Assembly (NCBI GenBank): GCA_963718295.1
Contig: CAVQYV010000004.1
Span: forward strand, 124,001-188,000
From: CAVQYV01 sp963718295 [NCBI: uncultured Methylomirabilota bacterium]
Lineage (GTDB): Bacteria; Methylomirabilota; Methylomirabilia; CAVQYV01
Reading direction: 5' to 3'
Length of the DNA stretch: 64,000 bases
Positions 30,805-63,307 of the stretch are shown piece by piece. Each line of letters begins with the position of its first letter. The first letter of the stretch is position 1. The position numbers and the translations under genes were made by a program. Under the pieces are notes generated by a model. That model ran no database searches. It had not been told where the DNA came from and was given only the letters and a program-made list of their open reading frames with translations.

Positions 30805-30845
30805 CAAACCAGGCATTGAATCCATCAAAGAAAGGAGGTGAATAC

Positions 30846-47422: not shown

Positions 47423-48427
47423 ATGATTCGTGTAGGAATTATTGGATACGGCTATTGGGGCCCGAACATACTCCGGAACTTCAGCCATGTTGAAGGATCT
47501 CGTGTGGTTTCGGTTTGTGACAAGAATCCACGCGCACTAGAACAATTGATCAAGGCTTATCCCTCGATTCGGGCGACATTAGAGGCCGATGAGTTGATAG
47601 AATCCGTCGATATTGACGCGGTGGCAATCATTACGCCAGTTTTCACGCATTACGAGCTGGCCAAGAAGGTACTCCTGCAGGGAAAGCATGTGCTAGTAGA
47701 GAAGCCTTTCACGTACAAGGTTGACCAAGCCCAGGAACTAATAGAGCTATCTGAGGGAAAAAACCTTAAGATCATGGTTGACCATACGTTCCTTTTTACG
47801 GGGGCAGTCAAGAAGATCAAGGAGCTTATCGAGGATGGCACCATTGGAGACTTATTGTACTTCGACTCCATGAGGGTTAACCTCGGACTATTTCAGCACG
47901 ATGTCAATGTTGTGTGGGATCTGGCTCCCCATGATCTATCGATATTAGACTACCTGAGCCAAGAAGAACCTTCTGCCGTGATGGCGGCCGGCAAGAGTCA
48001 CTTTGATGGGGCCTTGGAGGATACTGCCTACCTGACCTATTACTATTCAAACAATTTGATTGCACACATTAACGTCAACTGGCTTTCACCTGTAAAGATC
48101 AGAACCACGCTGATTGGGGGACGGAAGAAAATGGTTGTCTGGAACGATTTAGAGCCCGACAACAAGATCAAAATATATGACAAAGGGGTCGAAATAACAA
48201 GCAAAGAAGGCGTTTACGATCTCCTTGTGAGTTACCGCTCGGGCGATATGTGGGCACCCAAGTTAGAGCAGACAGAGGCTCTGAGAATGGAGGCTCAGCA
48301 CTTTATTGATTGTATTATCCACAACAGGCGTCCGATCAGCGATGGGCATTCCGGTCTGCGGGTGGTCAAGATGCTCGAAGCTGCAAACAGGTCACTCAGA
48401 AAGAACGGGGAAATCGAATGCTTATGA
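47423..48427 (+). CDS. Gfo/Idh/MocA oxidoreductase, sugar-nucleotide type
   Basis: The 334-residue protein starts with a Rossmann fold (RVGIIGYGYWGPNILRNFSH) and has the Gfo/Idh family EKP motif (GKHVLVEKPFT) and an active-site segment NVVWDLAPHDLSILDYL. It resembles WbpB/WlbA, which oxidise UDP-N-acetylglucosaminuronate at C3, and it is followed by a WbpD-like acetyltransferase, as in those pathways. A WbpE-type aminotransferase would be needed between them; only a broken one is found downstream. GGAGGGAAACC before the ATG is a good ribosome site. Coupled to the next gene by an ATGA overlap. Confidence 0.88.
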   Translation: MIRVGIIGYGYWGPNILRNFSHVEGSRVVSVCDKNPRALEQLIKAYPSIRATLEADELIESVDIDAVAIITPVFTHYELAKKVLLQGKHVLVEKPFTYKVDQAQELIELSEGKNLKIMVDHTFLFTGAVKKIKELIEDGTIGDLLYFDSMRVNLGLFQHDVNVVWDLAPHDLSILDYLSQEEPSAVMAAGKSHFDGALEDTAYLTYYYSNNLIAHINVNWLSPVKIRTTLIGGRKKMVVWNDLEPDNKIKIYDKGVEITSKEGVYDLLVSYRSGDMWAPKLEQTEALRMEAQHFIDCIIHNRRPISDGHSGLRVVKMLEAANRSLRKNGEIECL

Positions 48428-48942
48428 AATACGTGGAAATATCCGAAGACGTGAAGCTGGGAGACAATGTCAGGCTCTCCAAATTCATAAACCTATATGG
48501 ATGCTTTATCGGGGATAACACCAAGATAGGCGCATTTGTTGAGATTCAGAAGAATGCTCATATCGGAAAGAACTGTAAGATATCGAGCCATAGTTTTATC
48601 TGTGAGGGGGTAACGATCGAGGACAATGTATTCATTGGCCATAGTGTCACTTTCATAAACGATAGATACCCTCGTGCCACGAGGGCAGATGGTCGATTGC
48701 AGACCGAGGCGGATTGGAAGGTGGAGCCGACTCTGATCAAGAAGGGAGCTTCCATTGGGTCTGGATCTACGATATTGGCAAATGTCATTGTAGGCGAGAA
48801 CTCGATGGTGGGTGCGGGAAGCGTAGTAACGAAGAGCGTTCCGCCAGATACCATTGTGGCCGGCAATCCCGCAAGGATATTGCGAAGGAGTGATGAAAAA
48901 GGCGCAAAGGCGGCCGACGGTTCCCGAGGTAGCAATTCATAA
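48424..48942 (+). CDS. hexapeptide-repeat N-acetyltransferase, WbpD-like
   Basis: About 172 residues from the ATG that overlaps the upstream TGA; an ATG two codons upstream is an alternative. The left-handed beta-helix is clear from isoleucine-patch hexapeptides (LGDNVRLSKFI, IGDNTKIGAFVEI, IGKNCKISSHSFI, IEDNVFIGHSVTF, IGSGSTILANVIVG). FINDRYPRA and EADWKVEPT are typical of WbpD/WlbB-type UDP-2-acetamido-3-amino-glucuronate acetyltransferases. It would add acetyl to the 3-amino group. The context with the Gfo/Idh gene supports a di-N-acetylated uronic acid sugar. Confidence 0.88.
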   Translation: MKYVEISEDVKLGDNVRLSKFINLYGCFIGDNTKIGAFVEIQKNAHIGKNCKISSHSFICEGVTIEDNVFIGHSVTFINDRYPRATRADGRLQTEADWKVEPTLIKKGASIGSGSTILANVIVGENSMVGAGSVVTKSVPPDTIVAGNPARILRRSDEKGAKAADGSRGSNS

Positions 48943-48977: not shown

Positions 48978-49018
48978 ATTGAACCGAGTTCTGAATTCAA
49001 GGTGCACTGAAGGTCTTT
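48978..49018 (-). repeat. 41-base dispersed inverted repeat, copy 1
   Basis: ATTGAACC ... GATTCAAGGTGCA ... TGAAGGTCTTT type sequence. The reverse complement recurs at 60976-61016 with 4 mismatches over 41 bases. Both copies lie just after acetyltransferase genes. Confidence 0.7.
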
Positions 49019-49045
49019 GCAACTGCGAAAGCGATCAGGTGGTGT

Positions 49046-49212
49046 GGTGCCAAGCCGGTCTTTTTAGATGTGGAAGGGGAGACCCCAACATGGATCCAGC
49101 CTTGCTGAAAGACGCCATCATCCCTCGGGCGAAGTACATCCCCCCAGTTCACCTCTTCGGTCAGATGGCAGATAGTGCTATCGAAAAGGCGGCCAAGCTG
49201 CTGAAAGCACTA
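49046..49212 (+). pseudogene. remnant of a DegT/WbpE-type aminotransferase
   Basis: Two frames together spell a fragment of a sugar aminotransferase: GAKPVFLDVEGETP in one, then after a one-base shift NMDPALLKDAIIPRAKYIPP and VHLFGQMAD in the next. This is the segment between the PLP-binding N-terminus and the active-site Asp of DegT/DnrJ/EryC1 enzymes. The N-terminal 80 residues, the Asp-Ala-Ala motif and the PLP lysine are missing. It lies directly after the Gfo/Idh and WbpD-like genes, where a WbpE homologue is expected, so this is probably the deleted original. Confidence 0.7.
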
Positions 49213-49215
49213 AGC

Positions 49216-49248
49216 CTGACAGAAGATGTAGGTAGCAGATTCTGTCAG
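49216..49248. repeat. hairpin after the aminotransferase remnant
   Basis: CTGACAGAA, a 15-base loop and TTCTGTCAG give a perfect 9-base-pair stem without a T-tract. It marks the point where aminotransferase homology ends. Confidence 0.55.
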
Positions 49249-49346
49249 CAATTGGGGCCTACATTTTGCCCAATCCTTTTTGGGTCGTCCGCTTTGCTTT
49301 TCGTTGCCAGATCACCTTGGATGTGGTTTGACTGAGCGGAGGAATG

Positions 49347-49598
49347 ATGTCTGAAATGATTACCGATAAATTAAGGCAGTTTATTGTCGATACCTTTCTG
49401 TATGGTGACCAAGGGGGTTTGGGAAACGGTACTTCACTGACCGAAGCGGGCATTGTTGATTCCACCGGGATCTTGGAACTCATATCCTTTCTGGAGAACG
49501 AGTTTTCGGTAACCGTTGAGGATGATGAGTTGACCCCTGAGAATCTTGATTCAATCGAACGGCTTTCTCGATTCATTAGTCAAAAAGCTGCAAATTAG
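49347..49598 (+). CDS. acyl carrier protein
   Basis: About 83 residues; ATGs at 49344, 49347 and 49356 are possible, and GGAGG at about 49339 favours 49347. The phosphopantetheine site is GIVDSTGILELISF with Ser about 39, in the family position before helix II. Acidic helices (ENEFSVTVEDDELTPENLDS) complete an ACP fold. It is unlike fatty acid AcpP (DSLD) and is followed 33 bases later by an AMP-ligase, so it probably carries a dedicated acyl or aminoacyl group for sugar decoration rather than serving fatty acid synthesis. Confidence 0.9.
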   Translation: MSEMITDKLRQFIVDTFLYGDQGGLGNGTSLTEAGIVDSTGILELISFLENEFSVTVEDDELTPENLDSIERLSRFISQKAAN

Positions 49599-49631
49599 CT
49601 ACCCTTGTAAAGTATTGGCAGGAGTTCTTTC

Positions 49632-51209
49632 GTGCTCTTACACGACCATTTGACAAGTCAAGCACGCACCCGACCGCAAGAGGTAGCGCTAATCGTGGGG
49701 TCGGAGTATGTAACGTATGAGTCTCTCGACAGAAGCAGCACAAACTTGGCTTGTGCACTCAAGAAACGGGGCGTTGCAAGGGCGGATCGGGTCGCCCTTT
49801 TCCTTCCCAATTCTAAAGAGACGGTTCTGGGGATATTCGCTGCGCTCAAAGCCGATGCAGCGTTCGTACCCCTCAATCCTACAGTTAAGTTCGAAAAGCT
49901 TGCAGCTATTCTCAACGACTGCAGGCCGACCGCCCTCATAACAGGCAACATGAGGCATATTGATCCTACCTCGTTGGCAGAGGGAGTTCCATCTCTCAAG
50001 GTGATCGTTATTTGTGATACAGAGAAACCTCCGTCGGAGGAGAGGTTTCTGTTTCTGCACGATGCATTAGAGCAGGGAAGCGGTGCGCAGTTGTCATCGC
50101 AAAACATAGATATCGACCTGGCTTGTGTTATCTACACCTCCGGTTCAACGGGCATACCTAAAGGCGTCATGATGGCTCACAGGAATGTGCTATCAATCGC
50201 TAATTCCATCATTTCTTACTTGGACAATACTGTGGATGAGGTCATCCTCAGCTGTTTACCCTTATCTTTCGTTTACGGTCTTTACCAGGTTTTGATGTCA
50301 GCGATGTTTGGAGGAACGGTCGTCCTTGAAAAAGGGTTTAGCTATCCCCAGGTCATCATAGAGAAGCTCAAGGAATTCAAGGCAACGGGATTCCCTTTGG
50401 TTCCTACAATGGCTGTTATGCTCCTTGAAATGGAGGCCTTCAATGGTAGGAATCTTCCGGACCTCCGTTACATTACCAGCGCAGGCGCCCAGTTACCTGT
50501 TAAATACATCAAAAAGATGCAGACCCTTTTCCCCCATACAAGAATATATCCAATGTATGGATTGACAGAATGCGCAAGGGTCTCCTATTTGCCTCCAGAA
50601 CAGATTGCTCTGCGCCCATCCTCTGTGGGTAAAGGAATGCCCAATGAAGAGGTGTGGGTCGTTGATGAGACAGGTTCCCCGGTTCCTCCAGGCGAGACAG
50701 GAGAGCTGGTAGTACGAGGTTCGAATGTCATGCTTGGCTATTGGGAGCGGCCTGAAGAGACAACCAAGGTTCTCCGCCAAGGGAGATACCCGGGTGAACG
50801 GGTACTTTATACTGGCGACCTTTTTAGGAGTGATAACGAAGGGTACCTCTATTTTGTCGGCAGGAAGGACGACATGATTAAGACCCGAGGTGAGCGGGTG
50901 AGTCCGGCGGAAATAGAGAGGACATTATTGAGAATGGCCAGCGTCAAGGAGGTGGCCGTAATAAGTGTTCCCGATCCGCTCCTGGATCAGACAATTGTCG
51001 CTCATGTTGTTCCCACAAGCAATGCTAAGATTGATGCGCAGTCTGTTAAGAAATTTGCGGCGGAGCATTTGGAGGACTGGATGGTCCCAAAATTCGTGGA
51101 GATAGTCTCTAACCTTCCTCAGAATTCAAGCGGGAAGATTGACAAGAGGTTGCTCAAAGATGAATTCTTATCCAAAAGACCCATTGGAAAAGATGTCGAA
51201 GGTCCGTAA
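49632..51209 (+). CDS. AMP-dependent acyl/aryl ligase of the EPS locus
   Basis: 525 residues from a GTG with AGGAG 7 bases upstream. ANL-superfamily core motifs are present: CVIYTSGSTGIPKGVMMAH (A3), PMYGLTECARVS (A5), VLYTGDLFRSDNEGYLYFVG (A7), KTRGERVSPAEIE (A8) and the catalytic Lys in NSSGKIDKRLLKDEF (A10). It activates a carboxylic acid as acyl-AMP and passes it to CoA or a carrier protein; the adjacent ACP is the obvious acceptor. Close relatives are annotated as exosortase A-associated AMP-ligases. The substrate is not readable. The next gene starts inside its 3' end. Confidence 0.9.
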   Translation: MLLHDHLTSQARTRPQEVALIVGSEYVTYESLDRSSTNLACALKKRGVARADRVALFLPNSKETVLGIFAALKADAAFVPLNPTVKFEKLAAILNDCRPTALITGNMRHIDPTSLAEGVPSLKVIVICDTEKPPSEERFLFLHDALEQGSGAQLSSQNIDIDLACVIYTSGSTGIPKGVMMAHRNVLSIANSIISYLDNTVDEVILSCLPLSFVYGLYQVLMSAMFGGTVVLEKGFSYPQVIIEKLKEFKATGFPLVPTMAVMLLEMEAFNGRNLPDLRYITSAGAQLPVKYIKKMQTLFPHTRIYPMYGLTECARVSYLPPEQIALRPSSVGKGMPNEEVWVVDETGSPVPPGETGELVVRGSNVMLGYWERPEETTKVLRQGRYPGERVLYTGDLFRSDNEGYLYFVGRKDDMIKTRGERVSPAEIERTLLRMASVKEVAVISVPDPLLDQTIVAHVVPTSNAKIDAQSVKKFAAEHLEDWMVPKFVEIVSNLPQNSSGKIDKRLLKDEFLSKRPIGKDVEGP

Positions 51210-52173
51210 GTCATTTTCAAAGGACCTCTTGGCTATCGATTGCCCACGGACTGTCGAACGGATTAGAGATTTCATTGGGGTATCCGTTCTTCGTGATTTT
51301 AATAAGGAGGGGGCTGTTATTGGGCTCAGCGGGGGGATAGATTCGTCCGTAGCTGCAGTGTTGGCTCGTCAGGCATTGGGAAGAGACAAGGTCCTGGGAT
51401 TAATACTCCCCGAGAGAGAAACAGATCCACTCAGTGAGGATTTGGCCAGAAGGCTTAGCACTCAGTTTGATATCTGCACGGAGAAAGCAGATTTGGCGAA
51501 GAGCTGCGAGTCTCTTGGTGTATACGAACGGCGCAATGCAATTGTCAAAGAAAACTTCCCTGAGTATGATCTCACAAGACATCAATACAAGCTGGCGTTG
51601 TCGGAAAGCCTATTGGATGGAAGTGGTCTCAACATTTACAGGTTGGTCCTGGTTGCAAAGGATGGTACTACCAAGACCAAGAGACTGGGCAAGGAAGATT
51701 ACTTGGGAATCGTTGCCGCAACCAGCATAAAGCAGCGACTCAGGATGGTTGCACTCTATTACTATGCTGAGCGCAAGAATTATTCTGTCATTGGCACCAC
51801 AAATAGAACGGAGCTCGATCTCGGCTTCTTTGTGCGCTATGGAGATGCCGGTGTCGATATTGAACCACTTGCAGGACTTTACAAGGCACAGGTTTACCAG
51901 CTCGCACGCTATCTCGGGATTCCCGACGAAATCATTCAAAGACCGCCCACCGCAGACGTTTATCCCGCGATGAGTGAAGACAAGGAGTTCTATTTTCGAC
52001 TTCCCTATGAATTGTTGGACCCTCTGCTCTATGCCTGGAAACATGAAGTTCCTGTAAATGAAGTGATGCAGGCGATGCATCTTACGGAGGAACAGGTTCT
52101 GCGTGTCTATCGTGATTTTGCAGTGAAGGAGAAGGTAGCAAAGCGCCTTCAGCAGTCACCGGTCGGACTATGA
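51193..52173 (+). CDS. NAD synthase-like PP-loop amidotransferase
   Basis: About 326 residues from MSKVRKSFSKD; ATG at 51160 is an alternative start inside the ligase gene. The NadE core is seen: PP-loop IGLSGGIDSSVAAVLA (46-52), VIGTTNRTELDLGFFVRYGD and VDIEPLAGLYKAQVYQLARY. Between them lies an insertion of about 60 residues (YDLTRHQYKLALSESLL, LVLVAKDGTTKTKRLGKEDY) not found in ordinary NAD synthases. No glutaminase domain is present, so it would use ammonia. Position after ACP and AMP-ligase in a sugar locus suggests it amidates something other than NaAD; that is inference. Housekeeping NAD synthesis cannot be excluded. Confidence 0.8.
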   Translation: MSKVRKSFSKDLLAIDCPRTVERIRDFIGVSVLRDFNKEGAVIGLSGGIDSSVAAVLARQALGRDKVLGLILPERETDPLSEDLARRLSTQFDICTEKADLAKSCESLGVYERRNAIVKENFPEYDLTRHQYKLALSESLLDGSGLNIYRLVLVAKDGTTKTKRLGKEDYLGIVAATSIKQRLRMVALYYYAERKNYSVIGTTNRTELDLGFFVRYGDAGVDIEPLAGLYKAQVYQLARYLGIPDEIIQRPPTADVYPAMSEDKEFYFRLPYELLDPLLYAWKHEVPVNEVMQAMHLTEEQVLRVYRDFAVKEKVAKRLQQSPVGL

Positions 52174-52443
52174 TTTAAATGGCCCGGCTGCTCTATTTTG
52201 GTTTGATTCGAGCCCTCTGTGTGCAGCGTCGCGAAGGAATGGTTCCAGGGTGTGGATTTGCAGATCGATTTCTCTGGGTGGCGAACCCGTCCTTCTGTCC
52301 TCTTTGCCCAAAGGATATCCGATGGCAGGGGGTCAGCGGAGGAGGGGGCTGATTTCGCCTATCAGGTGTTTCAGGCGGCTTGGGATCCCCTCTCCTGCTC
52401 CTGTTTGTCTCACTCAGGGGGAGACGGGAAGTCGATTTCTGTT

Positions 52444-53463
52444 AAATGGGGGTATGCACTTGACGGAACCTGGTACGATATGTAGTATATCGGGAATATG
52501 GAAGAGTATCCACGAACGCTTCGGGAGTTCGAGGCCCAGTTTTCCACCGAGGGTGCCTGCCGAGAGTATCTGTTCCGATGGCGATGGCCCGGCGGCTTTG
52601 TCTGTCCCCGATGCGGAAACCCCGGAGGGTGGGTGGCAAAGAGTGGACGAATCGTCTGCAGCGGATGCAGGTCGGGCACGACGGTCACCGCGGGAACCAT
52701 TTTCCAGGACAGCCGTCAACCGCTGACGGTTTGGTTCCAAGCGATGTGGTGGGTGACCAATCAGAAAACGGGGCTCAGCGCCCTGGGATTGCAGCGATCG
52801 CTGGGCTTGGGCAGTTACCGCACGGCCTGGATGATGTTGCACAAGCTCCGCAGTGGGATGGTCAGGTCCGAGCGGGACCGGCTGACCGGCACCATTGAGG
52901 TCGATGAAGCATATGTGGGTGGGTTAGAAGAGGGCGTCCGAGGCCGCGGCACCGCAGAGAAAGCCGTGCTGGTGGTGGCGGTACAAGAGGACGGACAGGG
53001 CATCGGTCGGATTCGGATGGCGCAGGTAGCGGATGCCGCCGCCAGCTTGCATGGATTCGTACAAGCCTCGATTGAACCAGGCAGTACCATTCACACGGAC
53101 GACTAAAGAGGATATCGGGGGCTGTAGGTGAAGGGCTATCCGCATAGAGTGACTCCGATCAAGAAGAGCGGGAAGCACGCGCATGAGATCTTGCCGCGAG
53201 TGCACAAGGTGGTATCTCTCTTCAAACATAGGAACGCATCAGGAGGCGATCAGCCAGGAGCATCTGGACAGTTATCTGAACGAGTTCGTCTTCCGGTTCA
53301 ACCGCCGGACCTCCGCCCACCGGGGCAAGCTCTTCCTGCGCTTGGTGCAACAGGCTGCGGCGGTGGAGCCGGTCCCCTATGCAAATTTGATCAAAGGCGT
53401 TCGGGAAGGTCGGTCCCGCAACCACAATATGTTGGGGTAGGTGCCGTCAAGTGCATACCCCCA
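52444..53463 (+). mobile_element. IS1595-type element, decayed
   Basis: A roughly 1.0 kb element bounded by inverted repeats: TGGGGGTATGCACTTGACGG at the left (from 52447) and its exact reverse complement at 53444-53463. The 8-base sequence TTTCTGTT flanks both sides (52436-52443 and 53464-53471), a target duplication of the size used by IS1595. It carries one broken transposase gene. Confidence 0.85.
52498..53440 (+). pseudogene. IS1595-family transposase, broken
   Basis: The first 202 codons are intact: a zinc ribbon (FVCPRCGNPGGW, IVCSGCRSGT), the helix-turn-helix and the start of the DDE domain (GTIEVDEAYVGG). The frame stops at TAA 53104-53106 inside the DDE motif STIHTDD. In-frame sequence goes on with a second stop, then VKGYPHRVTPIKKSGKHAHE, and after a frameshift GTHQEAISQEHLDSYLNEF with FRFNRRTSAHRGKLF, the family C-terminus. 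Two stops and a shift mean it is no longer functional. Confidence 0.85.
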
Positions 53464-53559
53464 TTTCTGTTATTCGGACCCCAGTTGCCTGTTTTAGTAA
53501 AGCTGCCTTCGTCATGTATGGTCGCCTGAACGGAACCTCACGCCAAACAACAAAAGACC

Positions 53560-54549
53560 ATGAAGATTTGCTCTAAGTGTGTACTTCCTGAGACATTTCC
53601 GGGGATTTCTTTCAATAGCGCGGGGATTTGCGTCTTCTGTGATGCGATAGAGAAATCCACATGCAATGACAGAAGAAAGGATATGGAGAGAAGATTTCTT
53701 GAGGTGGTGGATCGGAATCGGGGAACGTCTTTGTTTGATTGCGTCGTGGCATATAGCGGCGGCAAAGACAGCTCATTCCTCTTAGACCTTTTGGTGGGCA
53801 AATATGACCTGAGAGTATTGGCCGTTACATTTGATAACTGGTTCTTGTCTGATACGGCTTTCAGCAACATAAGGGTCGTTACAAAGAGTCTCAATGTGAG
53901 CCACATCTTCATTCGGCCGCCTTATGAATTGATGAAACAACTGTTTCACACAGCTTCCAATGAGGAGTTGTATTCCAGGAAATCACTGGAGCGCGCAAGT
54001 ACAATTTGTACTACCTGTATTTCTTTTGTTCGTTTTTCTTGCCTTCGAACTGCATTAGAGAAGGATATTCCCCTCGTTGTTTTTGGATTTAATCCTGGCC
54101 AGATGCCAGAGGGCGCTGCGATCGTCAAAACGAATGCGGCGCTTCTCAGGTCGTTGCAGCAATCCATTTATGGCCCGATCAGTGCCATTGTCAAAGACGA
54201 AGCTCGTGCTTTTTTCTTGGAGGAAAAACATTTCACCTCGGGATGTCGATTTCCGCATATAGCGAATCCGTTTGCCTTTGTCGATTATGAGGAAGAAAAG
54301 ATATACACGAGGATCCGCCAGATTGGATGGCAACGAGTTGTCGACACAGACGAGAACTCCACCAACTGCTTGCTAAATAGCTACGCAAACGTAGTCCATT
54401 ACAACAAATATGGGTATCACCCGTATGTTGCAGAAATCGCCAAGATGGTAAGAAGAGGGGAAATCAATAGAGAAGAAGGGCTGAGAAGAGTTGGGCCACC
54501 TCAAGTGAATCAGCTTGTTATGACTATTTCGAGGCAGCTTAATGAGTGA
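53560..54549 (+). CDS. zinc/PP-loop N-acetyl-sugar amidotransferase-like protein, copy 1
   Basis: A 329-residue protein. Zinc-ribbon cysteines at 4, 7, 24 and 27 (CSKCVLPETFPG, GICVFCDA) precede a PP-loop FDCVVAYSGGKDSSFLLDLL (65-72). This arrangement is that of the WbpG/PseA N-acetyl sugar amidotransferase family, which adds nitrogen to form acetamidino groups on surface sugars using ammonia from a HisH-like glutaminase. No HisH or HisF homologue is next to it. The C-terminal half (GFNPGQMPEGAAIV, STNCLLNSYANVVHYNKYGY) is family-typical. It lies after the IS1595 remnant and before an acyltransferase. A distant paralogue is at 61071-62135. Confidence 0.82.
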   Translation: MKICSKCVLPETFPGISFNSAGICVFCDAIEKSTCNDRRKDMERRFLEVVDRNRGTSLFDCVVAYSGGKDSSFLLDLLVGKYDLRVLAVTFDNWFLSDTAFSNIRVVTKSLNVSHIFIRPPYELMKQLFHTASNEELYSRKSLERASTICTTCISFVRFSCLRTALEKDIPLVVFGFNPGQMPEGAAIVKTNAALLRSLQQSIYGPISAIVKDEARAFFLEEKHFTSGCRFPHIANPFAFVDYEEEKIYTRIRQIGWQRVVDTDENSTNCLLNSYANVVHYNKYGYHPYVAEIAKMVRRGEINREEGLRRVGPPQVNQLVMTISRQLNE

Positions 54550-54575: not shown

Positions 54576-55076
54576 ATGCTTAGAAATCTATTCAACCGGC
54601 TCTTGCACAGAATAGCCTACATAGCACCGGGGGGTTATACGTTCCGAGTCTGGCTACATCGTATGCGAGGTGTGAGAATTGGGAAGAACGTATGGATAAG
54701 CCAGTCTGTTTACATTGATGAAGTGCATCCTGAGGGAGTCGAAATCGGAGATAATTGCACGATCGGTTTCCGGACCTCTATTTTCTCCCATCTATATTGG
54801 GGCCCCAGAAAGAAGAATGAATTTAGCAAAGTAGTGATCGAAAGGGATGTTTATGTGGGGCCGCATTGTTTGTTGCTGCCTGCCATAAGAATTGGTGAAG
54901 GATCAGTTATCAAAGGCGGAACAGTTGTCAGCTGCAACGTGCCGCCCTACACCTTCTGGGGTCTACCCGATGCGGCAGCCTTAGCCAAAGTGACCATACC
55001 GTTAACCACGAAGAGTAATTATAAGAGATTTGTTTTTGGTCTGAGGCCGCTGAAGGAAAGAAATCGGCAGGAATGA
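54576..55076 (+). CDS. hexapeptide-repeat acyltransferase
   Basis: The 166-residue protein has a left-handed beta-helix: GVRIGKNVWISQSVYID, VEIGDNCTIGFRTSI, VVIERDVYVGPHCLLLPA, IRIGEGSVIKGGTVVS. The N-terminal 30 residues (LLHRIAYIAPGGYTFRVWLH) are hydrophobic-basic and resemble the lead-in of O-acetyltransferases of the WcaF/NodL kind. A catalytic His is likely in IFSHLYWG. It would acetylate a sugar hydroxyl or amine. It is 26 bases after the PP-loop gene and is followed by the transposon block. Confidence 0.85.
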   Translation: MLRNLFNRLLHRIAYIAPGGYTFRVWLHRMRGVRIGKNVWISQSVYIDEVHPEGVEIGDNCTIGFRTSIFSHLYWGPRKKNEFSKVVIERDVYVGPHCLLLPAIRIGEGSVIKGGTVVSCNVPPYTFWGLPDAAALAKVTIPLTTKSNYKRFVFGLRPLKERNRQE

Positions 55077-55395: not shown

Positions 55396-55833
55396 ATGGA
55401 GAATTATCGGAAATCCAGCCATACCGTTTACGATCTGAAGTATCACCTCGTCTGGGTCACCAAATACCGCAAGCGGGTGTTGCGCGGAGAGATCGCCGAG
55501 CGGGTCCGGAATTTGATCCGAGAGATCTGCAAAGCCAGGGACGTGGAGATCATCAAGGGTCATATCTCCAGCGATCATGTCCATCTCTTTCTCTCGGTGC
55601 CACCGCATCTGTCCGTAAGCCAGCTGACCCAATCGCTCAAGGGGAAGACGTCGCGCAAGATGATGATGGAGTACAAGTCTTTGAGCCGAGCATTCTGGGG
55701 TCGCCATATCTGGGCCCGAGGCTACTTTGCCGCCAGTTCGGGAAACGTGACCGATGAAGTGATCATGAAGTACATCGAACAACAAGGCAAAGAACCTCCG
55801 GATGGCGATTTCAGGGTGGATGGGGAGCCTTAG
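55396..55833 (+). CDS. tnpA: IS200/IS605 transposase TnpA
   Basis: A complete 145-residue Y1 transposase. It has KYHLVWVTKYRKRVLRGEI, the HxH metal motif in SSDHVHLFLSVPP, and the C-terminal segment GYFAASSGNVTDEVIMKYIE that carries the catalytic Tyr helix. It excises and inserts single-stranded DNA at hairpin ends. The stop codon TAG coincides with the insertion point of the IS5-type element: its TA belongs to the target triplet and its G is the first base of the inserted IS, so the reading frame length is unchanged. Confidence 0.9.
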   Translation: MENYRKSSHTVYDLKYHLVWVTKYRKRVLRGEIAERVRNLIREICKARDVEIIKGHISSDHVHLFLSVPPHLSVSQLTQSLKGKTSRKMMMEYKSLSRAFWGRHIWARGYFAASSGNVTDEVIMKYIEQQGKEPPDGDFRVDGEP

Positions 55834-56725
55834 GACTTATCCCTACATAGGAGCTACCTTCCTCCAACAGATGATAGCAGCGGCCAAATGAACCAGCGCC
55901 TCATAGCTTTCAGCCAGTTTCTCATACCGCACCAGGAGCTTGCGGAAGCGATTGAACCAGGAGTGGACCGCTTCCACCATCCAGCGCCGGTTCTTGGGGG
56001 GGGACGCCCCGGCTTGTGCTTCTTGTGCCGAACTCGGGAGAGATACCCATGAGCGGTAAGGATCGTCTGGGCCGGTTCCCCCTCATAGCCCCGGTCGGCG
56101 CACAGAAAGGGGTCGTGGTGGGGCAGGGGGAGAATCAGGGCATCCAGCACCGCCTCCAGCTGGCTGACATCATGCCGGTTCGCTCCGGTGACGATCAACG
56201 ACAGCGGGACGCCACGCCCGTCCACCAACACATGGCGCTTGCTCCCATTTTTTTCCCCGATCCGTCGGGTTGGGTCCGACGGCCTCTTTTGCCAGGGGAG
56301 CCTTGACCATGACTCCGTCTATGCTTTGCCATTTCCAGGCAATGCCTTCCATCTCGTCGTACTCGGCCAGACCCGCACGCCAGAGGGCCAGGAAGAAACC
56401 CGATTTCAGCCAGTCCCGGAAGTACTGGTGCACGGAGCTGGTACTCCCGTACTGTTGCTTGGGCAAGGCCTTCCATTGGCATCCGGTCCGGAGCACATAT
56501 ACGATGCCTTCAAAGACCTTGCGAGGATTGATGGGTTTGCGTCCACCGCCCGGCCTCCGCCGGAAGGTCCGAGCTTGGTCTCGCTCTCGCTTGGGAATGA
56601 GGGGCTCCACTCGCTTCCAGAACTCATCGGATACTTCCCATGATCGAATCTTGGCCATACCATCACCTCCTGGCAGGAGTATAGTATGGTGGACAGGTTA
56701 ACGCAAGGTAATTACGGATAAGTCC
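55833..56725 (-). mobile_element. IS5-family element (IS427-like), nested
   Basis: An 893-base element with terminal inverted repeats GGACTTATCC at 55833 and GGATAAGTCC ending at 56725. The triplet TTA is duplicated on both sides (55830-55832 and 56726-56728). It carries one transposase region on the minus strand, split over three frames. It sits inside the IS200-type element, so it arrived later. Confidence 0.9.
55843..56658 (-). pseudogene. IS5-family transposase over three frames
   Basis: Frame 1 (from ATG 56658) reads MAKIRSWEVSDEFWKRVEPL, WQSIDGVMVKAPLAKEAVGP and NPTDRGKK. A shift at an A7 run near 56250 gives frame 2: NGSKRHVLVDGRGVPLSLIV, GANRHDVSQLEAV and ADRGYEGEPAQ. A second shift at a run of eight C on the coding strand (55996-56003) restores RRWMVEAVHSWFNRFRKLLV and ends IICWRKVAPM at 55843. 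The DDE residues are spread over all three pieces. IS427-type elements can use a programmed shift at the first site; the second site looks like damage or a homopolymer error. Confidence 0.85.
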
Positions 56726-56883: not shown

Positions 56884-57921
56884 ATGATATCGAGCAATGC
56901 CGGAAAAGAATTTCGAAGGCAAGGAAGCAATCTGTACTGGATCGGAGTTGCAATGGGTGCCTATCCTATTCTAAAGCCGATCCTTCCTAAACCCTTGTTG
57001 ATTTATCTTCGAAGCAGATGTGCAATGTTGATACAGAAATGCAGCAGCGGTGTCTGGCCCATTGATGAAAATAGCGACAGGCCCCCAGAGACCTGGAGAG
57101 GGTGGCCAGGAGGCAAACGTTTTGCACTTGTCTTGACGCATGATGTTGAGGGTGATCTGGGGCAGAAGAATTGTCATGAGTTGGTCGAGCTCGAGATTCG
57201 GCTCGGTTTTCGATCCTCCTTCAATTTCGTCGCGGAGGGCTACCAGATAAACCGTCGCCTCCAGAATTACATTGTAGAGCAAGGATTTGAGGTAGGCGTT
57301 CATGGGTTGACCCATAGAGGAAATCTATTCCGTTCAGAGGAAGCTTTCAGGGAAACGAAAGCCGGAATCAACCGCTATTTGAAACAATGGCAATCCGTTG
57401 GGTTTCGTACCCCTTCTATGTACCACAATCTGGAATGGATTAGCGAACTGGAGATAGAATATGATTCCTCGACTTTTGACACAGATCCCTTTGAGCCTCA
57501 GCCCGATGGGGTGGGGACGATATTCCCATTTTGGGTGGAAGGTCAAACGGGAAGGGGGGGGTTTGTAGAGCTGCCATATACGTTGCCGCAAGACTTTACT
57601 CTGTTCTTGCTTCTGAAGGAAAAAAGTATTGACGTGTGGAAGAGGAAACTGCGCTGGATTGTAGAAAAGGGTGGGATGGCACTAGTGAACACGCATCCGG
57701 ACTATATGAGATTTGATCATGCAAAAACGTCCTCAATTGAATATCCAGCAAGACACTATGAGGATTTCCTGAGCCACATTCTATCCGAATACGAAGGGCA
57801 ATACTGGCACGTGCTGCCCCGGGAAATGGCTCGATTTTGGAGAGAGAGTTTCGTAAATAGAGCCTCTGGAATCAATAGTCAAGGGCAAAAGGACGGCAAA
57901 TCACAGGAAGACGGGACTTAG
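56884..57921 (+). CDS. polysaccharide deacetylase-like (NodB fold) protein
   Basis: The 345-residue protein carries a NodB-type domain (about 80-310). The metal/catalytic motif LVLTHDVEGDL corresponds to NodB motif 1 (Asp-Asp pair, here HDVEGD), FEVGVHGLTHRG to motif 2 (HxxxH type, here HGLTH), and VGFRTPSMYHN to motif 3. MALVNTHPDYMRF is the C-terminal His motif. Such enzymes remove N-acetyl groups from sugars; in export loci they can modify the growing polymer. The first 75 residues contain one weakly hydrophobic stretch (WIGVAMGAYPILKPIL) and no clear signal peptide. The start codon has no good ribosome site. The next gene follows after 2 bases. Confidence 0.82.
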   Translation: MISSNAGKEFRRQGSNLYWIGVAMGAYPILKPILPKPLLIYLRSRCAMLIQKCSSGVWPIDENSDRPPETWRGWPGGKRFALVLTHDVEGDLGQKNCHELVELEIRLGFRSSFNFVAEGYQINRRLQNYIVEQGFEVGVHGLTHRGNLFRSEEAFRETKAGINRYLKQWQSVGFRTPSMYHNLEWISELEIEYDSSTFDTDPFEPQPDGVGTIFPFWVEGQTGRGGFVELPYTLPQDFTLFLLLKEKSIDVWKRKLRWIVEKGGMALVNTHPDYMRFDHAKTSSIEYPARHYEDFLSHILSEYEGQYWHVLPREMARFWRESFVNRASGINSQGQKDGKSQEDGT

Positions 57922-57923
57922 CC

Positions 57924-58973
57924 ATGCTGGAGAGGGTCCACTTGGAAAAGACATCCGATGAGGAGAAGTGGGATGAGTTCGTCAGATCGCATCCCAAAGG
58001 TTCCCCCTTTCATCTCACTTGCTGGATTAGGATGATTCAGAAGACATACTCATTCGAACCGCTACTCTACGCTTACATAAATGGAACGGGAAGCATTTCG
58101 GGGATTTTCCCCTTCTTCATGGTAAAAGGACCATTTGGGGGCACTCGAGTTGTTTCACTTCCTTTCTCAGACTACTGTGGCCCGCTGTTTGATGATGAAT
58201 TTGAGGAATCAGAATCCCTGATCAAGATCATTGAGGAATATAAGAATCGAGTCAAATGCATCGAGATCAGAAGCAAAATGTCAAATGCCCATGGCCTGGA
58301 CTGTTTCTGCCATTATAAGCGCCATGTATTGAAGCTCTTGCCTGATCCTGTGCAATTGCTGACGACCATGGACAAGAAGACTATTCAGCGGTGTATCAAG
58401 AGGGCCGAGAAACTCGGCGTGAAAATAAGGGAGGAGAACAATGAGCGGGGGTTGGAGGAATTCTACAGGCTGAATCAACTGACCCGAAAGAAACACGGTG
58501 TTCCTTCCCAACCAAAGTCCTTTTTCAAGAATTTGTTTGACCAAGTGATCTTGAGCGGAAATGGGTACATACTGCTTGCTACAATTGATTCCAAGGTCAT
58601 ATCAGGGGCGGTATTTTTGAGATTTAAGGACACGGTTTATTATAAGTACAACGCTTCTGATCCTGAGTATCTGTCAAAGATGACTCCTAACCACCTGTTG
58701 ACCTGGTATGCGATCGAGCGGGCTTGTTTGGAGGGTTATTCATTCTTTGATTTTTGTCGGACATCACCCGATAATCTTGGGCTGATGAGATATAAGGAGA
58801 TGTGGGGAGCCGATCCCTTGGATTTGCCATACTACTTCTATCCTCAGGTTAAAGGGGCGACATCCATGGAAGGCAGCGGGTTGCTCTACCGAATTTTTAC
58901 GAGCGCTTGGAGGGCTTTGCCTGATTCGCTTGTTGAGGCCATAGGACCTAAAATCTACAGGTTCATGGGATAG
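57924..58973 (+). CDS. FemAB/GNAT-like acyltransferase
   Basis: The 349-residue protein fits the FemAB-like group with two GNAT halves: FHLTCWIRMIQKTYSFEPLL near residue 33, KKTIQRCIKRAEKLGVKIRE near 150 and a C-terminal core with LATIDSKVISGAVFLRFKDT, YYKYNASDPEYL and GYSFFDFCRTSPDNLGLMRYK. Relatives include FemX-type aminoacyltransferases and the FemAB proteins of PEP-CTERM and EPS loci, which transfer amino-acyl or acyl groups to sugars or peptidoglycan. A role as the final acyl-transfer enzyme for the carrier-protein module upstream is an attractive inference. It is 2 bases after the deacetylase gene. Confidence 0.82.
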   Translation: MLERVHLEKTSDEEKWDEFVRSHPKGSPFHLTCWIRMIQKTYSFEPLLYAYINGTGSISGIFPFFMVKGPFGGTRVVSLPFSDYCGPLFDDEFEESESLIKIIEEYKNRVKCIEIRSKMSNAHGLDCFCHYKRHVLKLLPDPVQLLTTMDKKTIQRCIKRAEKLGVKIREENNERGLEEFYRLNQLTRKKHGVPSQPKSFFKNLFDQVILSGNGYILLATIDSKVISGAVFLRFKDTVYYKYNASDPEYLSKMTPNHLLTWYAIERACLEGYSFFDFCRTSPDNLGLMRYKEMWGADPLDLPYYFYPQVKGATSMEGSGLLYRIFTSAWRALPDSLVEAIGPKIYRFMG

Positions 58974-60523: not shown

Positions 60524-60997
60524 GTGGATAGACTGGCAAAAATGTCGAAGAGCATGATCATGATCAGAAAGAAGATTCTGAAGTACTTCGCCAAAATCCT
60601 ACCTGGTAACGCCCTCAGAGTGCGGCTCTTGAGAATGTGCAACTACATGATTGGCAAGGATGTATATGTGGGGGAAGATCTCATTATCATCGATGATCTC
60701 AGCGATCCAGCAACCTGTTTAATCATAGAAGATCGAACTGCAATATCTCCCCGCGTCACCTTCGTTTTGCATTCTGCACCCAACGAGTCGCGGATAAGGA
60801 AGTTGTTTGAAAAGAAGGGGAGAATCGTAGTAAGACAAGATGCCTGGATAGGGACGGGTGCCGTTATTCTGCCCGACATTGAAATCGGTGAGGGGGCAAT
60901 TGTTGGCTCAAATTCCGTGGTCACAAGAAATGTTCCGAATTACACGGTGGTTGCTGGAGCACCGGCAAGGGTCATAAAGACCTTCAATGCACCTTGA
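60524..60997 (+). CDS. hexapeptide-repeat acetyltransferase
   Basis: 157 residues from a GTG with AAGGA 6 bases upstream; the ATG at 60542 is an alternative. Beta-helix hexapeptides (MIGKDVYVGEDLIIID, CLIIEDRTAISPRVTFVLHS, IVVRQDAWIGTGAVILPD, IEIGEGAIVGSNSVVT) and the ending NYTVVAGAPARVIKTF are typical of CatB/WcaF-like O- or N-acetyltransferases, with the catalytic His in VLHSAP. It is the third acetyltransferase of the locus. Its stop codon lies inside one copy of the 41-base dispersed repeat. Confidence 0.85.
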   Translation: MDRLAKMSKSMIMIRKKILKYFAKILPGNALRVRLLRMCNYMIGKDVYVGEDLIIIDDLSDPATCLIIEDRTAISPRVTFVLHSAPNESRIRKLFEKKGRIVVRQDAWIGTGAVILPDIEIGEGAIVGSNSVVTRNVPNYTVVAGAPARVIKTFNAP

Positions 60998-61016
60998 ATC
61001 CAGGACTTGGTTCAAT
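60976..61016 (+). repeat. 41-base dispersed inverted repeat, copy 2
   Basis: AAAGACCTTCAATGCACC ... GATTCAAGG-complement ... GGTTCAAT type sequence, the reverse complement of 48978-49018 with 4 mismatches. It spans the end of an acetyltransferase gene. Two inverted copies 12 kb apart could allow inversion of the segment between them. Confidence 0.7.
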
Positions 61017-61070
61017 TGCAACGGGGCAAGATCATCCGGTTTTCTTGCGAACGGCAAACGAGGACAGCGA

Positions 61071-62135
61071 ATGCAGAACGTCATGGTCCAACGTTGTACC
61101 AAGTGTTTAATGCCTAGCTCATACCCGGGAATTCATTTTGATGCGAGGGGTATCTGCGATCAATGCCTTCAGTTCAAGAAGAAGGAGCCGCTTGGAGAGG
61201 ATGCGTTGCTCGAGATATTACGTTCGAAAAGCGGCAATGAATACGATTGTATTGTCGGAATCAGTGGGGGAAAGGACAGCTGCTATGTGGCGTACCTGGC
61301 CAAAGAGATATACAAACTCCGGACCTTGGCCGTGTGCTATGATTTTCCATTCTTATGTGACTTGGCCAGAGTCAATGTAGACAAGGTGTGTAATGCACTC
61401 AATATCGAGTTGATAACTGTAAAGAGCAAGAACAATCTGGAATACAATCTGATCCGTAATCATCTGATGTCAGTAGCAGGAACGGGCACCTCGTGGGGGC
61501 AGTGCCTTTTCTGCCATTATGGAATTGACGCTATCTTACTTCAGATATCTGAGCAAAAGAGGATTCCCTTCGTCCTAGGTGGAATCACAAAATATGAACT
61601 ATGGGATCTCGGAAGCCGTGCGGGAATACTCTTGAGGCGAATTCGTAGACTTCCCTTTCCGGATATAATGCGATTCGCCTATTATCAATTCAAAGCCTAC
61701 CTGCGGTTAGTTGACCAGAGGAGACAGTTCAGAATACCATCATGCAGTGCCCTCAGGGTGTATTCGAGGGCAGAGGTCCCCTCCAACTCGACGAGACACA
61801 TTAACGTATTTGACTATGTGCAATGGGACCAGGAGCTGATGGAAGGAATTCTGATTGAAAAAACGGGGTGGATCAAGCCTGAGAAATCAATAAGTTGGAG
61901 GTATGACTGCATCCTTGAGCCCCTGTTGGACTATACCTATTTGAGGGAATTTGGTGTCTCCACGGTTGGCATATATTTGTCTAATCTCATAAGAGATGGG
62001 AGAATAGGCCGGGATGAAGCGCTCAAGGCCATGTATGCAAGCGAAGATAGGGAGGCGCTAAGGGGAAAGCTGGAATACGTTTTTGACTATCTGGAGATAC
62101 CGAAGAGTTACAGGGATGCATTCTTTGCGGCCTGA
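61071..62135 (+). CDS. zinc/PP-loop N-acetyl-sugar amidotransferase-like protein, copy 2
   Basis: 354 residues from the ATG giving MQNVMVQRCTKCLMP; upstream in-frame codons are repeat sequence. Cysteines at 9, 12, 29 and 32 and the PP-loop DCIVGISGGKDSCYVAYLA (65-70) have the same spacing as the copy at 53560, so the two are paralogues of the WbpG/PseA type. The middle has TSWGQCLFCHYGIDAILLQI, an extra CxxC, and the C-terminal KSISWRYDCILEPLLDYTYL is family-typical. It probably adds nitrogen to an activated acetamido sugar. No glutaminase partner is nearby. Confidence 0.83.
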   Translation: MQNVMVQRCTKCLMPSSYPGIHFDARGICDQCLQFKKKEPLGEDALLEILRSKSGNEYDCIVGISGGKDSCYVAYLAKEIYKLRTLAVCYDFPFLCDLARVNVDKVCNALNIELITVKSKNNLEYNLIRNHLMSVAGTGTSWGQCLFCHYGIDAILLQISEQKRIPFVLGGITKYELWDLGSRAGILLRRIRRLPFPDIMRFAYYQFKAYLRLVDQRRQFRIPSCSALRVYSRAEVPSNSTRHINVFDYVQWDQELMEGILIEKTGWIKPEKSISWRYDCILEPLLDYTYLREFGVSTVGIYLSNLIRDGRIGRDEALKAMYASEDREALRGKLEYVFDYLEIPKSYRDAFFAA

Positions 62136-62170: not shown

Positions 62171-63307
62171 ATGTCCGTTTTTGTCGCACGACCGAAGAGG
62201 GACATCAAGGAATCGATAAGAGCGATATTCTGCAATTATCGGGAAGACCTCGATTTTTCCAAAGGGGTTCTCCTGAAGCCAAATATCGTCTTTCCCATGC
62301 GGCCGAAAAGCAGGCAAGTGACTCCTCCTGACATGGTAAGGGCCGTGATCGAGGTATTAAGGGAGGCTCATCCTGATATTGAGATTATCATTGGAGAAGG
62401 GACCGCTGCAGGAACAAATCCGATCGAGAATTTCAAAATCTCAGGATATGCCAGTATGGCCCGGAAGCTTGGGGTAACCCTTTTGGATTTTGATCAAGCC
62501 GACCGAGTGGAGCTGCAATGGAAATACGGGACCCTTGAAATTCCCCAAATCGTCTTCGATAAGACCTACATCAGCCTACCGATCTTGAAGGCAAGTTCGG
62601 CGGCGGTCATGTCCGGGGCCATGAAAAATCAAAAAGGCCTGCTTACGCCCTCCATGAAAAAGAAATTCCACCGGTGGGGGTTACATGGTCCGATCGCCGA
62701 GTTATCGCAAGCGGTTCGGCCAAGTATCACCATAATGGATGGTTCCAGCTTCTTTAGGGGGAATGTACTCATTGCTGGGAACAATCTTTATGAAATGGAT
62801 AAACTGGTGGCGGAGGTATTGGACCTCGGCGAAGCGGAATACCTGAAAGAGGCAGAAGCATATGAGTCAAGGGAAGCTGACCACAGAATCGAGGGATATG
62901 ATCTCCTGCAACCCAAGGCTATCAAACGCGGAAAGGAAGCATTCAAGAAATTCCTGGGAATGAGATTTTGGACAAGCCCCAGGGCTTGTTCCATGTGTCG
63001 CATGTGTCTGAATCATCTTTTGAGGCTTCAGGTTCGGGAGATTGGGCGGTCTTTTCCGATATACGGGAAGTTGGCACAATATGCCGTAAAGGGAGCAGAC
63101 TTCGTATTTGGCCTCAGGCCTCAATTTGAACCCAAATCTCGAAACGTTGTGTGTTTCGGAGACTGCACAAAGGAGTTGGCCCACGAGAACGGATATCTCC
63201 ATATCCCCGGATGCCCTCCCACGAAAGAGGGGATATTGAAACATCTTTGTGTGAGTTCACATGATGAAATATTGGCAGAGGATCTTCCAACAGTGAAAAT
63301 CAAGTGA
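62171..63307 (+). CDS. DUF362-family protein
   Basis: The 378-residue protein matches DUF362: FSKGVLLKPNIVFPMRPK and TPPDMVRAVIEVLREAHPDI near the N-terminus, IIIGEGTAAGTNP, FDKTYISLPILKASSAAVMS and IMDGSSFFRGN later. DUF362 proteins often carry a ferredoxin domain; here only CSMCRMCLNH and CFGDCTKEL give Cys pairs, too few for a standard 4Fe-4S ferredoxin. Function is not established; they occur as orphan genes and in surface-sugar loci. GGGGAATAGTTTC precedes the ATG, a fair ribosome site. It is 35 bases after the PP-loop gene and probably co-transcribed. Confidence 0.8.
   Translation: MSVFVARPKRDIKESIRAIFCNYREDLDFSKGVLLKPNIVFPMRPKSRQVTPPDMVRAVIEVLREAHPDIEIIIGEGTAAGTNPIENFKISGYASMARKLGVTLLDFDQADRVELQWKYGTLEIPQIVFDKTYISLPILKASSAAVMSGAMKNQKGLLTPSMKKKFHRWGLHGPIAELSQAVRPSITIMDGSSFFRGNVLIAGNNLYEMDKLVAEVLDLGEAEYLKEAEAYESREADHRIEGYDLLQPKAIKRGKEAFKKFLGMRFWTSPRACSMCRMCLNHLLRLQVREIGRSFPIYGKLAQYAVKGADFVFGLRPQFEPKSRNVVCFGDCTKELAHENGYLHIPGCPPTKEGILKHLCVSSHDEILAEDLPTVKIK

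What the first reader, a model, noticed from the sequence alone, without database searches (positions are those of the whole stretch)
49347..54549. Carrier protein, AMP-ligase, NAD synthase-like and PP-loop genes form a candidate sugar-decoration module
Seen: ACP (DSTG site), a full ANL ligase, an NadE-like protein with an unusual insertion and no glutaminase, then (after an IS remnant) a zinc/PP-loop amidotransferase and an acetyltransferase, all on one strand in a polysaccharide locus. Known: ANL ligases load carriers; PP-loop enzymes adenylate for nitrogen or sulfur attack; FemAB enzymes transfer acyl groups. Inference: an acyl or amino acid is activated, loaded on the ACP, amidated and moved to a surface sugar, perhaps by the FemAB protein at 57.9 kb.
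Basis: partly seen in the sequence, partly recalled or inferred. Interest (0 to 1): 0.7.

Follow-up and report, generated by a model that had tools for sequence, protein, structure and literature searches.

The report
Carrier module with repurposed NAD synthase
A protein that databases call NAD synthase belongs to a widespread bacterial gene set that seems to load an acid onto a small carrier protein and put nitrogen on it; the likely nitrogen-adding enzymes of this set replace one another from genome to genome, and the final product is unknown.

Summary
In detail: ACP (49347), ANL ligase (49632), a NadE-like protein with a 55-60 residue insertion and no glutaminase (51193), an IS1595 element, and a PP-loop protein (53560). 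The grouping is real. Of 80 genome loci found with the NadE-like protein, 53 carry module-type ACP, ligase and AsnB within 10 kb; none of 20 canonical nadE neighbourhoods does. 24 of 25 genomes have another NAD synthase, so this is not the housekeeping enzyme. Close relatives of the window's PP-loop protein also sit with ACP and ligase. Over 133 distinct loci I count AsnB+NadE-like 72, AsnB+PP-loop 17, NadE-like+PP-loop 7 (window included), one of them only 37, all three 0. Best reading: an acid is loaded on the ACP, and two interchangeable ATP-pyrophosphatase synthetases install nitrogen (amide or amidine) before an acyltransferase moves the group, often in exosortase polysaccharide loci, sometimes outside them. 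Substrate, product and every enzymatic step are inferred. My paper searches did not turn up this gene set.

The parts
49347..49598 (+). acyl carrier protein, DSTG phosphopantetheine site
   Evidence: nearest NCBIfam NF052616 at 55 bits, far below its cut-off of 130
49632..51209 (+). ANL (AMP-forming) ligase; residue at the recalled GrsA Asp235 position is Val in the window, Asp in 47 of 67 close relatives
   Evidence: TIGR03098 458 bits, below cut-off 592
51193..52173 (+). NadE-like PP-loop synthetase (PRK00876/NF002048 subfamily), no glutaminase
51523..51702 (+). insertion of the NadE-like protein (about residues 111-170), missing from 5 canonical NadE
52444..53466 (+). IS1595/ISXO2 insertion sequence, transposase frameshifted, between NadE-like and PP-loop genes
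53560..54549 (+). PP-loop synthetase of the WbuX/TtuA fold; seven cysteines invariant in the 19 aligned (C4, C7, C24, C27, C150, C153, C270)
54576..55076 (+). hexapeptide acetyltransferase; loose associate (orthologues in L014, L186, L250)
49016..49296 (+). remnant of a DegT aminotransferase in two frames, upstream of the ACP
47423..48427 (+). Gfo/Idh sugar dehydrogenase of the surrounding polysaccharide locus
48310..48942 (+). hexapeptide acetyltransferase of the polysaccharide locus (start uncertain, overlaps the gene before)
56884..57921 (+). deacetylase-like protein (no Pfam or NCBIfam hit; 382 bits to a neighbour of NadE-like in L076; resemblance to polysaccharide deacetylases is my reading)
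57924..58973 (+). FemAB/GNAT acyltransferase, candidate last step
62171..63307 (+). DUF362 protein, possible associate

Best explanation
The locus is a thiotemplated acyl-group module. The ANL ligase adenylates an acid and loads it onto the DSTG ACP (inferred from families). Two ATP-pyrophosphatase (PP-loop) synthetases, here the NadE-like and the PP-loop protein, elsewhere AsnB with one of them, adenylate a carbonyl of the carrier-bound or partner molecule and let ammonia replace the oxygen, giving an amide or amidine (inferred). In polysaccharide loci a FemAB or GNAT acyltransferase then moves the finished group onto an amine, perhaps one exposed by a neighbouring deacetylase (inferred). What is shown: the genes keep together across phyla, the three synthetases replace one another at the same place in the operon, and the NadE-like protein is not the only NAD synthase in 24 of 25 genomes looked at. 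The NadE-like protein is therefore most likely a repurposed relative of NAD synthase dedicated to this module.
For: Co-occurrence 53 of 80 (39 of 47 loci of 18 kb or more) against 0 of 20 canonical nadE loci. A set chosen by the NF002048 model: 11 over cut-off of 295 Nitrospirota genomes, 11 of 11 loci with AsnB+ACP+ligase, 8 of them not among the 80. Gene order AsnB-ACP-ligase-NadE in 26 of 80 and 7 of 11 loci, and AsnB-ACP-ligase-PP-loop in 5 of 20 and 5 of 7: the same slot holds either protein. In L242 an AsnB sits divergently beside ACP-ligase-PP-loop, where L191, L193, L196 and L198 have NadE-like. Of 133 distinct loci: AsnB+NadE 72, AsnB+PP-loop 17, NadE+PP-loop 7, one only 37, all three 0. 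NadE distances track those of ligase, AsnB and ACP (Mantel r 0.63, 0.77, 0.67; 0 of 999 permutations each). 24 of 25 genomes hold another NadE. Canonical motifs are changed, with an insertion next to the substrate half. Acyltransferase beside the module in 10 of 11 Nitrospirota NadE loci and 5 of 7 PP-loop loci.
Against: No activity was measured. The NadE-like protein keeps the P-loop and most residues shared with NAD synthases and superposes closely on them (Z 29.9, rmsd 2.5, 247 residues), so NaAD amidation in vitro is possible. 37 of 133 distinct loci show only one of the three synthetases and 15 show neither ACP nor ligase beside a lone synthetase; some are short contigs, but 2 of the 47 long loci among the 80 have no partner at all, and 8 of 19 Desulfobacterota NadE loci have none. 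2 of 9 genomes with NadE-like and PP-loop also hold a module-type AsnB on another contig, so 'never three' holds for loci, not genomes. With my seeds an acyltransferase was found in 34 of 80, 0 of 19 and 3 of 20 loci of the other sets and in 1 of 20 controls. Mantel tests are inflated by shared descent. The genome of the window is not held, so an AsnB elsewhere in it cannot be excluded.
Confidence: 0.5

Rival explanations
1. The NadE-like protein is a spare NAD (or NMN) synthetase; its place beside ACP and ligase is incidental or supplies NAD locally.
For: Above the cut-offs of PF02540, TIGR00552 and NF002048; closest folds are NAD synthetases and the Francisella NMN synthetase 3fiu.
Against: 53 of 80 loci with all three partners against 0 of 20 controls; another NadE in 24 of 25 genomes; replaced in the operon by a PP-loop protein of another family; changed motifs.
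Confidence: 0.08
2. The module makes a diffusible or cell-bound small molecule rather than decorating a surface sugar.
For: Several Desulfobacterota loci lie beside ribosome and tRNA genes (my reading of the ORFs) with no glycosyltransferase labelled; 6 loci have an extra ANL-thioesterase protein; a HemK-family methyltransferase recurs (13 of 80).
Against: Polysaccharide-type genes within 10 kb in 23 of 47 long loci against 0 of 20 controls; exosortase directly beside the module in several Nitrospirota.
Confidence: 0.3
3. The PP-loop step is sulfur insertion (thioamide), as by CtaC in closthioamide biosynthesis, not amidation.
For: CtaC is a PP-loop protein that acts on carrier-bound substrates and needs an Fe-S cluster held by three cysteines (PMC6772006: first of three parts of the text and found passages read). 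The window protein's family has invariant C150, C153 and C270 and its model resembles TtuA [4Fe-4S] thiolases after 8wex.
Against: The nearest structure is an N-acetyl sugar amidotransferase (8wex, TM 0.73-0.76), and the window's generic homologue at 60987 also shows CxxC motifs (my reading). NadE-like, which takes the same slot, has no invariant cysteine.
Confidence: 0.12
4. This is simply the known exosortase (XrtA) ligase and amidotransferase set.
For: Ligase best matches TIGR03098, the module AsnB scores 369-487 bits on TIGR03108, FemAB best matches TIGR03019; 26 of 40 module genomes, picked by me, hold an exosortase.
Against: All three score below those cut-offs; the three AsnB scanned pass only the general TIGR01536 asparagine synthase model. 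In 12 loci chosen by the XrtA decarboxylase TIGR03099 (two of them contigs of 3-4 kb), the ligase is there in 12, NadE-like, module PP-loop and module-type AsnB in none; one has a weaker AsnB of 246 bits. Alphaproteobacterial modules occur in genomes without a detected exosortase (G006, G007, G016).
Confidence: 0.1

Closest known systems
NAD synthase NadE; subfamily PRK00876/NF002048
   Same: Fold, P-loop SGGIDS, GTxNxxE and GFFVKxGDG regions; passes NF002048
   Different: Insertion of 55-60 residues, changed QTDE and C-terminal motifs, extra to another NadE in 24 of 25 genomes, sits with ACP, ligase, AsnB
WbuX/WbpG N-acetyl sugar amidotransferase (TIGR03573, 8wex)
   Same: Fold, and cysteine pattern in part, of the PP-loop protein
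   Different: Below the TIGR03573 cut-off; no HisF homologue over cut-off within 20 kb of it in 26 of the 33 genomes that have it, as far as contigs reach, whereas an acetamidino locus pairs WbuX with HisF and HisH genes (PMC11340318, one table passage read); sits with ACP and ligase
XrtA/PEP-CTERM exopolysaccharide genes TIGR03098, TIGR03108, TIGR03019, TIGR03006
   Same: Related ligase, AsnB, FemAB; a neighbour in L058 passes TIGR03006
   Different: PLP decarboxylase type loci lack NadE-like, PP-loop and module-type AsnB, 0 of 12
Closthioamide CtaC
   Same: PP-loop enzyme working on a carrier-bound substrate (PMC6772006)
   Different: No direct sequence comparison made; no sulfur chemistry shown here
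Butirosin-type ACP pathway (BtrI, BtrJ, BtrH; recalled, no call)
   Same: ACP-bound amino acyl group passed to an amino sugar
   Different: No ATP-pyrophosphatase pair, as far as I recall; homology not tested

Membership tests
NAD synthase NadE (functional) | Fold and P-loop of the family | tested here: met
   PF02540 189 bits; Z 29.9, rmsd 2.5, 247 aligned with 1xng
NAD synthase NadE (functional) | Motifs of the canonical sequences: QTDE (4 of 5 aligned) and C-terminal [HF]KR (5 of 5) | tested here: not met
   alignment with 5 canonical sequences; most NadE-like have QTQEE, the window MSEDKE; 4 of 9 fetched canonical loci gave no ORF to my filter and were dropped; which residues are essential was not checked
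NAD synthase NadE (functional) | Sole NAD synthase of the genome | tested here: not met
   24 of 25 genomes hold another; window genome not held
NAD synthase NadE (functional) | Amidates NaAD | not testable with these tools
   needs enzyme assay
PRK00876/NF002048 | Score over curated cut-off | tested here: met
   385.5 against 313
TIGR03098 XrtA ligase | Score over curated cut-off | tested here: not met
   458 against 592
TIGR03098 XrtA ligase | Stands next to the TIGR03099 decarboxylase | not tested
   window not scanned for TIGR03099; reverse test
TIGR03573 WbuX | Score over curated cut-off | tested here: not met
   160 against 203
TIGR03573 WbuX | HisF/HisH partners | tested here: inconclusive
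   In relatives, no PF00977 match over cut-off within 20 kb of the PP-loop gene in 26 genomes; HisH was not searched, and the window was not searched by profile
CtaC-type thioamide synthetase | Three-cysteine Fe-S site | tested here: inconclusive
   C150, C153, C270 invariant in 19, but not aligned with CtaC and shared in part by generic relatives
CtaC-type thioamide synthetase | Sulfur insertion on carrier-bound substrate | not testable with these tools
   needs mass spectrometry

The most novel reading that the evidence does not exclude
A new class of carrier-bound amidation (or amidination) in which two out of three unlike ATP-pyrophosphatase synthetases (AsnB type, NadE type, WbuX/TtuA type) act in turn on an ACP-bound acid; the proteins of the PRK00876 group now named NAD(+) synthase would be misnamed members of it.
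Probability: 0.3. Interest if true: 0.8.

Novelty: new variant of a known kind. Interest (0 to 1): 0.62.

Why it matters
If right, a protein group now annotated as NAD(+) synthase (for example on rhizobial plasmids) does other chemistry, and metabolic models that count it as nadE are wrong. The interchange of AsnB, NadE-like and PP-loop synthetases around one ACP-ligase core gives a natural experiment on how amide-forming enzymes replace one another, and points to an undescribed nitrogen-bearing acyl group, perhaps in exosortase-type exopolysaccharides of Nitrospirota and in rhizobia.

Tried and rejected
Considered and dropped: (1) AsnB and PP-loop as mutually exclusive twins (79 loci with AsnB only, 7 with PP-loop only, 24 with neither, 0 with both; Fisher p 8e-5); the larger set showed both together in 17 loci without NadE-like, so the exchange involves all three. 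(2) Fusions of NadE-like with other domains in L005, L018, L032: reading frames running through in GC-rich DNA or a frame change, judged not to be fusions. (3) Window ligase lacking the amino-acid contact Asp as a family trait: of 67 close relatives 47 have Asp, 10 Gly, 4 Asn, 4 Thr, 1 Ser and only the window Val; of 50 more distant module ligases 15 have Val and 3 Asp; 12 of 12 XrtA ligases have Asp. The GrsA numbering is recalled. (4) Viral library search with the NadE-like model: weak PP-loop matches only; 3 viral contigs encode NadE relatives at 27-30%. (5) S. meliloti locus tags: my guessed numbers include taurine genes. (6) Paper searches aimed at the gene set: no paper; one each; 48 papers, 15 listed; aimed at neighbours. 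None of the listings showed a paper on the set; the library holds open papers only and lists are capped. PMC3376133 (passages read) did not treat the group in what I saw.

Limits of the counts: the 80 loci were picked by similarity to an alignment of the window and rhizobial proteins (more matches existed than were kept); L041 repeats plasmid locus L005; L154, L155, L157 and L183 repeat L036, L077, L085 and L022, and L158 and L159 have identical NadE cores, which removes. Models of ACP, ligase, NadE-like and PP-loop were built with the window included; thresholds were set by me. Controls are 20 regions from 19 genomes, three of them 9-12 kb. In one search one of 14 control genomes, not named in the answer, also has a protein over the NF002048 cut-off. 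Exosortase, HisF and glycosyltransferases were not searched for by profile in the window.
Full report
The observation. The hexapeptide acetyltransferase follows at 54576. The insertion in the NadE-like protein is real and modelled with confidence (mean pLDDT 92.6), but it is a feature of the named subfamily PRK00876 (385 bits over a cut-off of 313). Upstream of the ACP lies a two-frame remnant of a DegT aminotransferase.

Is the grouping chance? tblastn on plasmids finds the NadE-like protein in 117 records and the ligase in 191; Sinorhizobium (76), Azospirillum (12), Ensifer (9) and Shinella (8) have equal numbers in both, and the ligase also hits Streptomyces, Rhodococcus and others. The nine plasmid neighbourhoods I chose to read hold AsnB, ACP, ligase and NadE-like; in L003 AsnB and ligase are in pieces. 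A scan of species genomes kept 80 loci from many phyla. With models built from the plasmid loci and, for all but AsnB, the window, 63 of 80 have the ACP, 65 the ligase, 64 AsnB, and 53 all three; of 47 loci of at least 18 kb, 39 have all three and 2 have none. Of 20 neighbourhoods of ordinary nadE genes in 19 of the same genomes, none has any. Nitrospirota genomes over the cut-off of NF002048 (11 of 295) give 11 of 11 loci with AsnB, ACP and ligase, 8 of them not among the 80. NadE-like distances follow those of ligase, AsnB and ACP, though shared descent inflates this.

It is not the housekeeping NAD synthase. In 24 of 25 genomes a second NAD synthase is found besides the module's; the exception is a 2.6-Mb assembly. 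In five of the 24 the second one is a long frame with a partial score of 81-107 bits, which I take for the two-domain type without having checked its glutaminase. Of five canonical sequences aligned, four have QTDE and all five a C-terminal [HF]KR; the NadE-like family mostly has QTQEE, and the window MSEDKE, while keeping the P-loop, the GTxNxxE and the GFFVKxGDG stretches. Fold comparison gives NAD synthetases as closest, including the Francisella NMN synthetase, so a residual activity on NaAD is not excluded.

The PP-loop protein belongs to the module. In Desulfobacterota, however, 6 of 19 NadE-like loci carry a close relative of it (271-314 bits) with the ACP, and 5 of the 6 with the ligase as well. 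Searching 297 genomes of that phylum with the window protein finds 26 genomes at 218-346 bits, then a gap to 112 bits. Nine genomes have both proteins, where about 1.5 would be expected by chance (17 x 26 / 297, which list the same handles); in three of them (G507, G531, G554) the two lie on different contigs, and the NadE-like loci there show no partner. Of the 20 PP-loop loci not already in the NadE set, 18 have an ACP, 18 a ligase, 12 a module-type AsnB, and none a NadE-like gene nearby. In Nitrospirota 7 of 295 genomes have the PP-loop protein, none of them among the 11 with NadE-like; all 7 loci have ACP and ligase, 5 have AsnB.

The interchange. After removing repeats, 133 distinct loci give: AsnB with NadE-like 72, AsnB with PP-loop 17, NadE-like with PP-loop 7, NadE-like only 27, PP-loop only 10, all three 0 (77, 17, 7, 37 and 0 of 138 before that). 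The commonest orders are AsnB-ACP-ligase-NadE (26 of 80; 7 of 11) and, among PP-loop loci, ACP-ligase-PP-loop with AsnB in front in 5 of 20 and 5 of 7; the orders vary widely otherwise. In L242 AsnB stands divergently beside ACP-ligase-PP-loop, where L191, L193, L196 and L198 have NadE-like. At genome level, in 30 genomes I picked, module-type AsnB (871 bits or more, next 567) is missing from 7 of 9 genomes with both NadE-like and PP-loop and present on another contig in 2; it is present in 6 of 6 with PP-loop only, in 7 of 8 Desulfobacterota with NadE-like only, in 4 of 5 of the other genomes with NadE-like (absent from G008, the genome of L024) and in 0 of 2 without either. The window is of the third kind: NadE-like and PP-loop, no AsnB in 64 kb. 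Incomplete assemblies weaken each single absence.

What it may do. From the families: the ligase loads an acid on the ACP. In close relatives the residue at the position I recall as GrsA Asp235 is Asp in 47 of 67, which suits an amino acid; the window has Val, as do 15 of 50 more distant module ligases, so its acid may differ. AsnB, NadE and WbuX types all adenylate a carbonyl and let a nitrogen (or, in TtuA and CtaC, a sulfur) attack (established for the families; CtaC from PMC6772006). That unlike enzymes of this one chemistry fill the same operon slot is the strongest hint that the step is nitrogen installation. The PP-loop family has the cysteine pattern C150, C153, C270 and a fold next to 8wex and then the Fe-S thiolases, so sulfur remains a rival. 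Where the module lies in exosortase-type loci (exosortase within about 0.2 kb of NadE-like in G193, G213, G248, G012, G121 and G017, comparing), FemAB and a deacetylase are usual (10 and 8 of 11 Nitrospirota NadE loci), which suits transfer onto an exposed amine. In the window a deacetylase-like gene and FemAB are back to back (56884-58973). Elsewhere no acyltransferase was seen (0 of 19 Desulfobacterota NadE loci) and some loci lie outside polysaccharide clusters, so a sugar target is not general.

Comparison with known systems. The ligase, AsnB and FemAB are relatives of the XrtA/PEP-CTERM families TIGR03098, TIGR03108 and TIGR03019, but below their cut-offs; 12 loci chosen by the XrtA decarboxylase have the ligase in 12 and NadE-like, module PP-loop and module-type AsnB in none. 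The PP-loop protein is below the WbuX cut-off and has no HisF over cut-off within 20 kb in 26 of the 33 genomes that hold it (the other 7 were not given to the call). The window is closest by aspartyl-tRNA synthetase to a Nitrospira genome among 20 compared (57%), which does not fix its phylum.

Verdict. Real and widespread; five paper searches aimed at the set showed no description of it in an open library. Product and mechanism are inferred.

Noticed in passing
window 49016-49296: Remnant of a DegT aminotransferase in two frames just upstream of the ACP; L014 has an open DegT frame a little upstream of its ACP and NadE-like genes.
   Followed up: partly
window 60987-62135: A second PP-loop protein of the generic WbuX kind (114 bits on the module model).
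   Followed up: partly
window 62171-63307; L014, L082, L186, L192, L194, L195: DUF362 proteins recur beside NadE-like genes (5 of 80 and 4 of 19 loci, 0 of 20 controls).
   Followed up: no
L010, L024, L027: Two NadE-like genes close together at one locus.
   Followed up: no
L035, L036, L077, L085: Nitrospira ligases of about 1030-1048 residues; in L036, the one scanned, two AMP-binding domains, so a tandem duplication.
   Followed up: partly
L050, L056, L060, L063, L072, L074: A 918-residue ANL plus thioesterase type protein stands before the NadE-like gene (Pfam run on L074 and L005).
   Followed up: partly
L025 6253-6927 and 12 other loci of the 80: A HemK/PrmC-family methyltransferase (over the TIGR00536 cut-off in L025) recurs near the module and might methylate a new amide.
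   Followed up: no
L086 6672-7541 (-) and 11 other loci of the 80: A weakly GDSL-like hydrolase family recurs near the module.
   Followed up: no
L026: A record titled Bacillus subtilis SK6B4 carries the module in the form seen in Pseudochrobactrum (L028, L046); the title may be wrong.
   Followed up: no
window 55396-55833 and 56170-56658: An IS200-type transposase and an IS4/5-type transposase in overlapping frames lie between the acetyltransferase and the deacetylase-FemAB pair.
   Followed up: partly
window 30816-34130: A 1104-residue protein with long near-identical Ala/Glu-rich repeats and a LysM-like end (my reading).
   Followed up: no
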